From Synechococcus sp. RS9916 (GTDB lineage: Bacteria; Cyanobacteriota; Cyanobacteriia; PCC-6307; Cyanobiaceae), in contig NZ_DS022299.1 in the NCBI RefSeq assembly GCF_000153825.1, positions 832,869-896,868 of the forward strand: a stretch of 64,000 bases of DNA. The letters run 5' to 3'. A program made the position numbers and the translations under genes. Below the pieces are notes generated by a model that made no database searches, had not been told where the DNA came from, and saw nothing but the letters and a program-made list of their open reading frames with translations. The number at the start of each line of letters is the position of its first letter. Position 1 is the first letter of the stretch. Positions 55,033 through 59,908 of the stretch are shown here, piece after piece.

Positions 55033-55260
55033 TTAACGACAACTGCCTACAGACCAGACACTCGCTCGTGGCGGAGCTGGGGGCTGATTGTCGGTGCATG
55101 GATCATTAATATGGGGCAGGTCCTCCCGCTGCCCATGTGATGATCCGGACGGAAATACAATAGATTCAGCCGCCACTCGATCGAAACTGCCCTCTTCGAC
55201 GAGTTCCAATTGATCATCAGTCAGTTCGATGATTGGGGCTTGGGTGTTGAGTTCAGACAT
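55033..55260 (-). CDS. Small leader-peptide-like protein, cassette 1
   Basis: A 75-residue protein from ATG 55260: MSELNTQAPIIELTDDQLEL then VEEGSFDRVAAESIVFPSG and a Pro/Cys tail (NDPCTDNQPPAPPRASVW, ending GSCR). The start resembles RiPP or bacteriocin leaders (ELTDDQLELV), but the processing site reads EEGS rather than GG. Two Cys lie in the C-terminal part. It is preceded by a ~215-bp leader DNA that is nearly duplicated before the double-glycine peptide gene at 58.3 kb. No modifying enzyme or dedicated transporter lies next to it. Function inferred only by position and leader. Confidence 0.5.
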   Translation of the reverse strand: MSELNTQAPIIELTDDQLELVEEGSFDRVAAESIVFPSGSSHGQREDLPHINDPCTDNQPPAPPRASVWSVGSCR

Positions 55261-55482
55261 GGTTTTGAAGTGAGGTAGGTGATTGATGTGTGGGGTGTTT
55301 GTTGCCGCCACGACTCCTTCAAGGTCCCAACCCTTCTGGTGATCCCGAGTGCATGGTTGTGGTGTGGATGCGGGCAAGATCTGGTGAGGTTCTGGTGAAC
55401 GGCTCAAAACCCAGTCACAGCCGTGTTTATGGGTCCCTCCCACCTGCAGGTAAGCAATAAAAGGCCCCACCATGGGCGGGGC
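55261..55482 (-). promoter_or_regulatory. Conserved peptide-cassette leader, copy 1
   Basis: About 205 bp directly upstream of the peptide ATG is close to identical to 58406-58620, including the stretches CACCAGATCTTGCC, CCTTGAAGGAGTCG, CACACATCA and CACTTCAAAACCATG next to the start. The distal end is a terminator-like hairpin GCCCCGCCCATGGTGGGGC (minus strand) followed by CTTTTATTGC. Substitutions between copies are not concentrated at third codon positions, so the DNA is probably untranslated leader or promoter. Long 5' leaders before the ATG suggest RNA-level control. Confidence 0.65.
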
Positions 55483-55628: not shown

Positions 55629-56471
55629 TTACATTTCAACTGTATGGCCATTAGTAAACAGCAGATCGTCGAGAGTCACCCCGGCGATAAAGGCTGCCTG
55701 ATCCATATTTTCTGTGTCAACAATTGCCACACCATTCACAAATTGCTCGACAACCCAATCTCCCCACTGTGCCAGTTGACCGTTGTGCGTAAGAGTCAGC
55801 TTGTCACCACTCTCGAAGTCCATAATTCTGTCTCTGTCCTGGGCATTGCCTGTTAGAGCAACTATGAAGTTGTCGGCATGCATGCCACCGTACAGGTCAT
55901 TCTTCCCACCACCACCGGTCAAGACATCTGTACCTTCTCCTCCTTCAAGAATGTCATCGTCCTCTCCTCCATCGAGAAAATCATTTCCCCAGAGGCCAAT
56001 TAAACGATCATCTCCTTTGTTGCCAATAACCCAGTCATCACCTGCTCCAAGGACAACCCAGTCGTTCATGACAGATCCATACACCTTGTCATCTCCTCCA
56101 CCAGTCGAAGTCTTGGTATTGAATTCAGTGAATCCATTCCATAATCCTTCCCCTTCGTGATCTGAATTGAGGTATACAACATCATCTCCACCATATGTGT
56201 TGATATAGCTATTTCCAGATGAGGTAGAAACAAACATATTGGCGTCCTGGCATGTTTGTGGATTCACGAATTTCTTATGCCCAAAGAAGTACTTAACTCC
56301 AGTAACAACTACATCTGCATCCTGCATTTCCTGCTGTTGATTAAGACTTTTGGTATCAACTGCCTCTATTGAGTTTTTGTTGCTGTGTTCACCCATGAGT
56401 GTCTCCAGCGATGGCTGATGACGATTGGAGCGGTTGGCTTGGAGAGCAAGGCCGAACAAAGAGCGTTTCAT
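55629..56471 (-). CDS. RTX-type Ca2+-binding repeat protein
   Basis: A 280-residue protein from ATG 56471. After a polar, possibly processed N-terminal region (MKRSLFGLALQANRSNRHQP, then LNQQQEMQDADVVVTGVKYF), residues ~130-210 carry nonapeptide Ca-binding repeats: GGGDDKVYGSVMNDWVVLGA, GDDWVIGNKGDDRLIGLWGN, and GGEDDDILEGGEGTDVLTGG. These form a parallel beta-roll that folds on Ca2+. The C-terminus (DKLTLTHNGQLAQWGDWVVE ... TNGHTVEM) could be the type I secretion signal. No HlyB/D-type exporter is in the window. Such proteins are usually exported surface or secreted factors. Confidence 0.82.
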   Translation of the reverse strand: MKRSLFGLALQANRSNRHQPSLETLMGEHSNKNSIEAVDTKSLNQQQEMQDADVVVTGVKYFFGHKKFVNPQTCQDANMFVSTSSGNSYINTYGGDDVVYLNSDHEGEGLWNGFTEFNTKTSTGGGDDKVYGSVMNDWVVLGAGDDWVIGNKGDDRLIGLWGNDFLDGGEDDDILEGGEGTDVLTGGGGKNDLYGGMHADNFIVALTGNAQDRDRIMDFESGDKLTLTHNGQLAQWGDWVVEQFVNGVAIVDTENMDQAAFIAGVTLDDLLFTNGHTVEM

Positions 56472-56599
56472 GATTGGAGTTGTGTGATGAATGTCGTGGG
56501 ATCTCTCCCTCCGATGCACTCACCATCGCCGTGATCGCCACCCGCTTCATTGACCTGGCTCAACGCCAGCTGTGATCTTGCTCACAGGTACTTAGAAGT

Positions 56600-58066: not shown

Positions 58067-58163
58067 TCAATCGATGGTGTGATTTTTTCATGGATCTAGG
58101 TAAATGTCAGCTCATCTGACAAGCGGTTAATGCCGCCAGCACGTCATCACTGGTGCAGGCACT

Positions 58164-58192
58164 AAAAAACCCCACTCGTGGCGGGGCTTTTT
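58164..58192. terminator. Bidirectional intrinsic terminator
   Basis: CCCCACTCGTGGCGGGG can fold, with six A residues on one side and five T residues on the other. On the minus strand it ends the transcript of the peptide gene 34 bp upstream. Confidence 0.75.
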
Positions 58193-58225: not shown

Positions 58226-58405
58226 TCAACCAACAACGTAATCACCAATGGTGGGACCACCCGCTCGTTGCATCGTGCGGTTTACGGGGCCAGCAGGCGT
58301 GAAGTCAGCGACACCATTGACGAGATCCTTCAAGAATCCGCCGCCTTGCACGGCCTCCAGGTCGTCTTCGTTGATGGTTTGAGCGTCGAAAGTTTGAGTG
58401 GTCAT
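58226..58405 (-). CDS. Double-glycine leader peptide (bacteriocin/RiPP-like), cassette 2
   Basis: A 59-residue protein, ATG at 58405 to TGA at 58226-58228. Leader: MTTQTFDAQTINEDDLEAVQ then GGG at 21-23. Residues INEDDLEAVQGG match the double-glycine leader pattern (acidic, LEAVxGG) of bacteriocins and of peptides exported by C39-peptidase ABC transporters. Cleavage after GG would leave about 37 residues, GFLKDLVNGVADFTPAGPV and a Gly-rich end GGPTIGDYVVG, without Cys. The leader resembles Ebf-type secreted peptides of Synechococcus elongatus in having a GG motif, but the core is not recognised. Leader DNA upstream is nearly identical to cassette 1. No C39 transporter is in the window. Confidence 0.72.
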   Translation of the reverse strand: MTTQTFDAQTINEDDLEAVQGGGFLKDLVNGVADFTPAGPVNRTMQRAGGPTIGDYVVG

Positions 58406-58620
58406 GGTTTTGAAGTGAGTTGAGTGAGTGATGTGTGGGGTGTTGCCCCCTCGACTCCTTCAAGGTCACAGCCCTTCTGGTGATCCCCAGTGCATGGATG
58501 TGGTGTGGATGCAGGCAAGATCTGGTGAGGTGCTGGTGAACGGCCCAGAACCCAGGCACAGCCTTGTTTATGGGTCTCCTCCTCCTGCAGATAAGCAATA
58601 AAAAACCGCTCGTGTGGCGG
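58406..58620 (-). promoter_or_regulatory. Conserved peptide-cassette leader, copy 2
   Basis: The counterpart of 55261-55482. From the minus strand: terminator-like CCGCCACACGAGCGGTTTTTT at its distal end, then TATTGCTTATCTGCAGGAGG, the shared CACCAGATCTTGCC and CCTTGAAGGAGTCG stretches and CACTTCAAAACCATG at the peptide start. About nine in ten positions match copy 1 over ~205 bp; one 3-bp gap is needed. The rest of 58621-58825 shows no gene. Confidence 0.65.
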
Positions 58621-58825
58621 GGCGGTGACAAAGGTTTTTTTAATTACATCCAGTTTTATCTGCCTCAGATTAATAGCACTCAATCAACCCAGGAATTGGA
58701 GGGAGGCTTGTGAGATTCTTGGCGATAAATAAAACCAGCTCAGGATAAGTAGTCACGCTTGGGAAGGCATATTCCGACTGACCAGCCATATGACTTGCTT
58801 AGATATTTTGATTTTTAATGTGTGC

Positions 58826-59908
58826 CTATATGAGGTAGCAACCTGCATAAAACCCATTCCCTGGTTTTTTGCTGCAAAACCACTCTTTGTTAAAGTTATC
58901 ATATTCAATCTTTGCCTTCCCTCCAAGGGCGTCCACGCAGTCACCCCATTGGTGTAAAAATCCCATGGGCATCCATTCGTATGCCCAGCCTGGAGGGCAA
59001 GCATCATGCACGCGCACATCTCTGTTGCTTGGCGTTGATGTCAGAGCATTAATCACAGGTAGTTCCTGAACTGCTTTGCGTTGCTCCGTTGTACTTGCAC
59101 CACCAAAGCGAACTTTTAGGTCTGCTGAAACTCTTGTGTCGAATGCTTCATCATGAGAGATGTTCACTCCAGCAGTTAAACCATTGCTGATCTCATAAGC
59201 CAGACGTCCGAGCACGCCTGAACCATCAGCAGTTCCAAGATCACCATGTTGGTAGTAGTAACCAACAGAAGCATTCAGCTCAGGGGTGATGAAATAACCA
59301 ATATCAAGCCCGTAGGTATTGAGTGCACCTCCCTTATAAAACCAGTTCAGAAGTTGCTCAGTATCACCAACTGGAAGCAAGGCATAAGTATCAAAGTTCC
59401 AATTATTGGAGACGGCTTCTGCATTGACTGTGACCTGCTGGAAGAATGCACTCTTCTCTGTGCCGCTAACAACGATGCCTGTATCGGTCCCGCCTGTATT
59501 CATTGGGCGGCTGTCATAACCAGCATTCAGCCCGTACATCCAAGAGCGATCGCCGTTCAGCCAGCGATAACCAAGACGGGTAGACGTGCTGATGCTGGCT
59601 CCAGCCACATCTGTGTTGATGATGCTGCTATAGCCCTCACGATCAGCGAAATTGACGTTGGCGAGCGCGTCGAGGAACCAAACGCTGTTGTCGTTGACCT
59701 TCAAGGGCAAGAACCCACCGATGCCTGCTTGATTAGGCGTGCCAGCACCCTGCAGTGCTCCTTGGACGCCAACCCGTGGTTTGACGATGTCCTTGAGCTG
59801 AATGCTCATCACGCCAAGGTCTTCTGCGCTGCCGTCCTGTGCTTTCAGCGGGAGTGGGGAGATGCCAACAGCGGAGGCAAGAAGCCCAATGGACAGTCGG
59901 CGGAGCAT
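58826..59908 (-). CDS. Inverse-autotransporter-like outer-membrane barrel protein with Cys-rich C-terminus
   Basis: A 360-residue secreted protein (MLRRLSIGLLASAVGISPLP signal, cleaved near KAQ). Residues ~45-285 read as a beta barrel similar to the inverse autotransporter domain: GVQGALQGAGTPNQAGIGGF, SVWFLDALANVNFADREGYS, STSTRLGYRWLNGDRSWMYG with LNAGYDSRPMNTG, and GYFITPELNASVGYYYQHGD. In intimin-like proteins Ig-like passengers follow the barrel. Here only a ~70-residue C-terminal part remains with several Cys (ACPPGWAYEWMPMGFLHQWG, CVDALGGKAKIEYDNFNKEW, FCSKKPGNGFYAGCYLI), probably disulfide-bonded at the cell surface. Confidence 0.72.
   Translation of the reverse strand: MLRRLSIGLLASAVGISPLPLKAQDGSAEDLGVMSIQLKDIVKPRVGVQGALQGAGTPNQAGIGGFLPLKVNDNSVWFLDALANVNFADREGYSSIINTDVAGASISTSTRLGYRWLNGDRSWMYGLNAGYDSRPMNTGGTDTGIVVSGTEKSAFFQQVTVNAEAVSNNWNFDTYALLPVGDTEQLLNWFYKGGALNTYGLDIGYFITPELNASVGYYYQHGDLGTADGSGVLGRLAYEISNGLTAGVNISHDEAFDTRVSADLKVRFGGASTTEQRKAVQELPVINALTSTPSNRDVRVHDACPPGWAYEWMPMGFLHQWGDCVDALGGKAKIEYDNFNKEWFCSKKPGNGFYAGCYLI

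What the first reader, a model, noticed from the sequence alone, without database searches (positions are those of the whole stretch)
58226..58405. A 59-residue double-glycine peptide that annotation would probably miss
The ORF is shorter than many gene-caller cut-offs but has a textbook leader (acidic, LEAVQGG) and a 37-residue, Gly-rich, Cys-free core. It is followed by a terminator. Double-glycine peptides in Synechococcus include secreted biofilm-related peptides, so a signalling or bacteriocin role is a reasonable guess.
Basis: partly seen in the sequence, partly recalled or inferred. Interest (0 to 1): 0.7.

Follow-up and report, generated by a model that had tools for sequence, protein, structure and literature searches.

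The report
Secreted-peptide gene with shared upstream switch
A marine cyanobacterium carries a small gene for a probably exported peptide, one of about a dozen such genes that all sit behind the same roughly 160-base control region; that region precedes scores of other secreted proteins in related strains, which suggests they are switched on together.

Summary
Window 58226-58405 (minus strand) encodes a 59-aa precursor with an acidic 22-aa leader ending LEAVQGG, a Cys-free 37-aa core and a strong terminator. The motif alone is weak evidence, but homologues show that the gene is real: close paralogues and one orthologue-like copy keep frame and GG site, with dN/dS 0.29-0.55. The genome has two C39 peptidase-ABC exporters, neither in the window.

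The larger finding is upstream. The ~160 nt before the start codon is a repeated module: 21 copies in this genome, present in 13 of 31 genomes of the genus (up to 35 copies) and in three other genera. It carries CACCAG repeats spaced 11, 22 and 23 bp and a near-invariant TGTGAyCTTGAAGGAGTC block. It shows no coding signal, no supported RNA fold and no TANNNT -10 box.

Of about 115 distinct copies, about 77 precede GG precursors (short-leader or Nif11). Most others precede small Sec-type proteins or larger proteins with type-I-secretion-like C-termini. Three genus genomes lacking a short C39 exporter carried only non-GG cargo in the copies examined.

Best reading: a C39-exported, unmodified peptide in a co-regulated secreted-protein regulon; its final activity is undetermined. 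The peptide kind is known; the module appears undescribed in the literature held here.

The parts
58226..58405 (-). 59-aa double-glycine precursor peptide gene
   Evidence: paralogues and orthologue-like copy with GG and frame kept, dN/dS 0.29-0.55
58340..58405 (-). leader MTTQTFDAQTINEDDLEAVQGG (hydrophobic I, L, V at -12, -7, -4; GG at -2, -1)
   Evidence: nearly unchanged in other copies, one of which has an unrelated core
58229..58339 (-). core peptide, 37 aa, Cys-free; shares a P..GP.N......GGPT.GD-like pattern with eleven other full-length genes in four genomes
   Evidence: alignment A1; distribution
58403..58563 (-). conserved upstream module (161 nt, ends at the ATG)
58477..58538 (-). 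CACCAG repeats: 58538-58533, 58527-58522, 58505-58500 (CACCAC), 58482-58477; spacing 11, 22, 23 nt
   Evidence: spacings 11, 22, 23 dominate over 107 copies; 11-nt variability period
58453..58470 (-). near-invariant TGTGACCTTGAAGGAGTC block, candidate core promoter (inferred)
   Evidence: TGTGAyCTTGAAGGAGTC exact in 73 of 107 copies; no TANNNT at any fixed place
58164..58192 (-). intrinsic terminator of the peptide gene
   Evidence: -16 kcal/mol, z -3.4, U6 tail
58595..58623 (-). terminator-like repeat at the 5' edge of the unit; with 58159-58187 it forms direct repeats 436 nt apart
   Evidence: D2
55255..55422 (-). second copy of the upstream module in the window
   Evidence: D1, 82% over 211 nt
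55033..55260 (-). decayed second GG peptide: MSELNTQAPIIELTDDQLELVEEG..., GG changed to EG and frame running on
   Evidence: compare intact copy at genome 1360326 (ELVEGGSFER)

Best explanation
The gene encodes a small, probably unmodified peptide made as an inactive precursor. A C39 peptidase-ABC exporter cuts the acidic leader after GG and exports the 37-aa core. It is one unit of a dispersed family. Each unit is a portable module (upstream control region, ATG, leader) joined to a variable core and closed by a terminator. The upstream region most likely acts in DNA as an activator-dependent promoter: CACCAG repeats one or two helical turns apart would bind a regulator (OmpR/PhoB-like spacing), next to a core promoter without a normal -10 box. 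This would switch on a whole set of secreted proteins together. The mature peptide most likely acts outside the cell on neighbouring cells, as an interference or recognition peptide. Shown: ORF, selection on it, paralogy, the shared module and its cargo bias, the presence of exporters. Inferred: export, cleavage, promoter mechanism, activity.
For: ORF and leader. In-frame paralogues and orthologue-like copy under purifying selection. Two short C39-ABC exporters, one in a cluster with a second ABC protein, an outer-membrane efflux protein and, nearby, a LanM. Module found 21 times in this genome and in 13 of 31 genus genomes, and in 17 of 400 family genomes from 4 genera. Among about 115 distinct copies, about 61 precede short GG precursors, 16 Nif11-GG precursors and about 20 Sec-like proteins (hand-corrected). 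Larger cargo ends in type-I-like ...YEVLA/YAVLA/EVMA tails or carries RTX repeats. ATG at a fixed place. CACCAG spacing 11, 22, 23. No covariation, no coding period. All seven genomes with at least 7 copies have a short C39 exporter, against 7 of 18 without the module (Fisher one-sided p 0.007). G002, G003 and G020 lack one, and the eight copies examined there precede only non-GG cargo.
Against: There is no expression, TSS or mass-spectrometry evidence. No adjacent immunity gene was found, which weakens a classical bacteriocin reading. The exporters are unlinked to the window. The regulator is unknown, and the promoter is inferred only from the absence of a -10 box and from repeat spacing. The exporter association over all module-bearing genomes is borderline (one-sided p 0.04; two-sided 0.07); it counts partial and incomplete genomes and ignores phylogeny. 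Some cargo (59-74 aa proteins in G012 and G016) has no obvious export signal. The AlphaFold model is low confidence (pLDDT 56).
Confidence: 0.6

Rival explanations
1. The peptide is an EbfG-like matrix or adhesion component that promotes aggregation or biofilm instead of acting on competitors; multiple copies raise dose and variety.
For: EbfG1-4 of S. elongatus are GG peptides exported by a C39 transporter and needed for biofilm (PMC4997328). No immunity gene is present here. The module also precedes Sec and type-I-like secreted proteins, as expected of a surface or matrix programme.
Against: EbfG precursors are 9-10 kDa, in one operon beside pteB. This one is 6 kDa, monocistronic and unlinked. 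The core family is found in only 4 of 400 family genomes by full-length match, a patchiness more typical of interference or recognition peptides.
Confidence: 0.27
2. A classical class II (possibly two-peptide) bacteriocin with its own immunity.
For: Leader matches the class II pattern; weak sub-threshold hits to Bacteriocin_IIc and lactococcin G-beta models.
Against: All hits are far below curated cut-offs. No second peptide or membrane immunity ORF in the transcription unit: the terminator starts about 33 nt after the stop, and the next gene is an ABM-domain protein.
Confidence: 0.12
3. The upstream module is a structured 5' UTR (cis-regulatory RNA) and not a DNA promoter/operator.
For: It is conserved up to the ATG, lacks a -10 box and contains a GGGGnnnnnnCCCC hairpin and an AAGGAG stretch.
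Against: Covariation is almost nil: 1 of 30 predicted pairs with a double change, and top mutual-information pairs are mostly not base pairs. Spacing is helical. No Rfam match near threshold.
Confidence: 0.2
4. The peptide copies are decaying repeats spread by recombination, with no current function; similarity is due to gene conversion.
For: Several copies are damaged (EG at 55033-55260, premature stop at 1374905, GG to GC or AG at 1047220 and 1053219). Leaders and upstream DNA are nearly identical.
Against: dN/dS 0.29-0.55 and an in-frame indel in the 58226 group. Module and GG cargo stay together across genera.
Confidence: 0.08

Closest known systems
EbfG1-4 / PteB, Synechococcus elongatus PCC 7942 (PMC4997328)
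   Same: Small cyanobacterial GG precursors, Cys-type C39 exporter needed, no modification enzyme reported as needed
   Different: EbfG are 9-10 kDa, one operon beside pteB; here single dispersed genes with a shared upstream module, unlinked exporter and a shorter core
Prochlorosins / Nif11 (N11P) precursors of picocyanobacteria (PMC10783134)
   Same: Many dispersed precursors, conserved leader with variable core, GG cleavage; same genome has Nif11 precursors and LanM; the upstream module precedes Nif11 precursors in relatives
   Different: Leader 22 aa instead of about 65 aa Nif11 domain; no Cys, so no lanthionine possible
Cyanobacterial GG precursors of Wang et al. 2011, 'Other' class (PMC3140520)
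   Same: Short precursor with GG leader; some unannotated; C39 exporters
   Different: Their search looked around exporter clusters; this family lies far from exporters and is marked by its upstream module
CCRG-2 family RiPP (NF033456)
   Same: Short leader ...LTxDQLxAxSGG; genes such as MTNTELTLDQLQAISGG lie in the same arrays
   Different: 58226 does not reach that model at all; a related leader in the set scores 15.2 against a cut-off of 24

Membership tests
Double-glycine (C39-processed) precursor peptides | GG at -2/-1 with hydrophobic residues at -4, -7, -12 in an acidic leader | tested here: met
   (V-4, L-7, I-12); leader charge
Double-glycine (C39-processed) precursor peptides | C39-ABC exporter in the same genome | tested here: met
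   two short-type exporters above the Peptidase_C39 cut-off
Double-glycine (C39-processed) precursor peptides | cleavage after GG and secretion of the core | not testable with these tools
   needs mass spectrometry of supernatant
Class II bacteriocin (PF10439, TIGR01847, NF038034) | score above curated cut-off | tested here: not met
   16.3/27.1, 12.9/15.7, 15.8/37 bits
Class II bacteriocin (PF10439, TIGR01847, NF038034) | adjacent immunity gene or partner peptide | tested here: not met
   terminator right after the gene, neighbour is an ABM protein
Prochlorosin / Nif11 precursor | Nif11-type ~65-aa leader and Cys in core | tested here: not met
   22-aa leader, no Cys; no Nif11 hit
CCRG-2 RiPP | score above NF033456 cut-off | tested here: not met
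   no hit for 58226
EbfG biofilm peptides | 9-10 kDa precursors co-transcribed beside a C39 exporter | tested here: not met
   6 kDa, monocistronic unit, exporters about 0.57 and 0.95 Mb away
EbfG biofilm peptides | core sequence homology | not tested
   EbfG sequences not at hand; the paper reports no homologues of mature EbfG in other cyanobacteria

The most novel reading that the evidence does not exclude
The ~160-nt module defines an undescribed secretome regulon of marine picocyanobacteria. One regulator, through helically phased CACCAG repeats and a promoter lacking a -10 box, would control dozens of small exported proteins that leave by three different routes (C39/GG, Sec, type-I C-terminal signal). 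Module-bearing units would spread and swap cargo by recombination.
Probability: 0.4. Interest if true: 0.78.

Novelty: new variant of a known kind. Interest (0 to 1): 0.55.

Why it matters
Most exported proteins of marine Synechococcus are uncharacterised and many are lineage-specific (PMC4949707). A shared upstream module that marks exported cargo gives a sequence handle for finding such proteins, including unannotated ones, and makes their common control testable by finding one regulator and one condition. It also offers a way to ask how GG-peptide repertoires diversify: the upstream region and leader stay fixed while the core changes.

Tried and rejected
Rfam: only sub-threshold Trp_leader hits driven by the terminator hairpin. 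Coding function of the upstream region: no open frame shared by all copies and no 3-nt periodicity. RNA fold: no covariation. A conserved -10 box upstream of or within the module: none at a fixed position; the CATAAA stretch upstream is absent in diverged copies. Single-sequence search of genome contigs found nothing, so relatives came from whole-genome searches. AlphaFold of the precursor: pLDDT 56, not used, no fold search made. The module core was not found in viral contigs. The consensus string was not found in any paper on these organisms in the held library, and the most relevant RiPP survey does not mention upstream regions. In one search (117 rows) the regular expression mislabelled a few Sec-like proteins as short GG (L125, L140, L164) and one GG as 'other' (L170), and two rows (L037, L101) are truncated repeats of units already counted; the counts quoted are corrected by hand.

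Full report
Observation. The ORF is present as described, on the minus strand. Leader: 22 aa, pI 4.05. Core: 37 aa, 3.79 kDa, near neutral, Cys-free, 19% Gly. About 33 nt after the stop comes a strong terminator stem with U6 (-16 kcal/mol). A chance control shows that a loose GG-leader motif is common in random ORFs of this composition (6.1 expected, 7 seen). A motif with a strongly acidic leader is not (0.17 expected, 1 seen: this ORF).

It is a gene. The genome (2.66 Mb, one contig) has paralogues at 1357956 (88% aa identity) and 64555 (71%). At 1561550 the same leader carries an unrelated core. A relative, G012 (contig length identifies it as Synechococcus sp. UW105), has a full-length orthologue-like copy. 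Pairwise dN/dS over the full-length group is 0.29-0.55, and the one indel removes a whole codon. More distant members in G000, G017 and G024 share the core pattern P..GP.N......GG.T.G(D), with some deviations. By full-length match this core family is found in 4 of the 400 family genomes sampled.

Export machinery. Two short C39-ABC transporters exceed the Pfam cut-off (genome 1838292 and 1467830). The second lies with a second ABC protein, an outer-membrane efflux protein and, nearby, a LanM-type synthetase. A long-type transporter has only a sub-threshold C39 domain. No Cys in the 58226 core means no lanthionine. Which exporter handles it is unknown.

The upstream module. BLAST between units showed that roughly 110-220 nt upstream of the ATG stay 84-95% identical between genes whose leaders and cores differ. 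An alignment shows conservation running to the ATG. The module occurs 21 times in this genome (E <= 1e-4), in 13 of 31 genus genomes, and up to 35 times in one. In 400 family genomes it appears in 17, from four genera. Named relatives include Synechococcus WH7803, UW105, UW140, AG-673-A03, AG-679-A04 and Prochlorococcus sp. MIT 0701. An exact core string was absent from viral contigs.

Cargo. Of about 115 distinct copies with enough flank, about 61 precede short GG precursors, 16 Nif11-leader GG precursors, about 20 proteins with a hydrophobic Sec-like N-terminus, about a dozen other or larger proteins, and 6 no ORF (hand-corrected). The start codon is normally at the same distance. Several larger cargo proteins share a C-terminal ...GADLI.GEPNQGMDPYQAQ..YEVLA-type tail. 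One is an RTX protein ending ...VADSLAF and one ends ...SDVLF. These look like type-I C-terminal secretion signals; that assignment is inference from known type-I signals. In other genera the cargo is again GG-type or nearly so (L167, L169, L170). A few small cargo proteins have no visible export signal.

Exporter match. All seven genus genomes with seven or more copies have a short C39-ABC gene, against 7 of 18 genomes with no copy (one-sided Fisher p 0.007; all module genomes 10/13, one-sided p 0.04, two-sided 0.07). The three module genomes lacking such an exporter (G002, G003, G020; two of them incomplete assemblies) carried only Sec-like or type-I-like cargo in the eight copies examined. 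Phylogeny was not corrected for.

How the module may work. Over 107 copies CACCAG recurs with successive spacing 11 (80 cases), 22 (64) and 23 (63), and variability follows an 11-nt period. These are one and two helical turns, as in tandem half-sites of OmpR/PhoB-family regulators (own knowledge). TGTGAyCTTGAAGGAGTC follows, almost invariant. No TANNNT hexamer occurs at a fixed place in or 90 nt upstream of the module, so a canonical promoter is unlikely. The extended TGTGAyCTT may serve as a weak -10 that needs an activator (inference). RNA structure gets no covariation support, and there is no coding signal.

Unit structure and spread. Terminator repeats of 29 nt flank the 58226 unit at 58159-58187 and 58595-58623, with a third copy at 55454-55482 next to the second module. 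The units could recombine through these and through the 160-nt module. Leader and upstream DNA are nearly identical while cores vary, and at 1561550 the same leader has another core. This fits cassette duplication and core swapping. Copies also decay: 55033-55260 has EG for GG, 1374905 has a premature stop, 1047220 has GC and 1053219 AG.

Function. Shown: gene, selection, paralogy, module, exporters. Inferred: cleavage and export (likely), co-regulation (likely), activity (open). I favour action on neighbouring cells (interference or recognition), because cores are variable and strain-patchy. An EbfG-like surface or matrix role is nearly as plausible, because there is no immunity gene and the module groups many kinds of exported protein. 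Overall confidence 0.6 covers the precursor/export/regulon reading with an extracellular role; the precursor status itself is about 0.9.

Novelty. The peptide is a new family of a known kind (GG precursors), below every curated model cut-off tested. The module was not found in the literature held here, which lacks most subscription journals, so prior description elsewhere is possible.

Noticed in passing
55033-55422: A second module copy followed by a decayed GG peptide (EG instead of GG), just downstream of an RTX-repeat protein gene (55629-56519, minus).
   Followed up: partly
58826-59908 (minus): 360-aa protein with a signal peptide and beta-barrel-like sequence, no Pfam family above cut-off; upstream neighbour of the peptide unit.
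   Followed up: no
L120, L122-L124, L086, L088, L098, L099, L139, L183, L185, L191: A family of 50-87 aa Sec-like proteins (MSxKSLFxYxLSLTLGIxxVTHAKxQLIEQ...) found behind the module in several genomes; function unknown.
   Followed up: partly
L082, L085, L087, L114, L188: Otherwise dissimilar 250-305 aa proteins sharing a C-terminal GADL(I/V)xGxxNQGxxPYQAQxxxYxVLA tail, which looks like a type-I secretion signal; L190 (227 aa) has a partial version (NQGMDPNQAREYEVMA).
   Followed up: partly
G000:C1:1366373 and 1367134 (L015): Two identical 64-aa GG peptides (also identical in G017), each followed by a Nif11-like 90-aa precursor: a recent tandem duplication shared with another genome.
   Followed up: no
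G000:C1:1360326-1360683 (L014): Two different GG peptides in tandem behind one module; the second keeps only the last ~25 nt (CACTCAACTCACTTCAAAACCATG) before its ATG.
   Followed up: no
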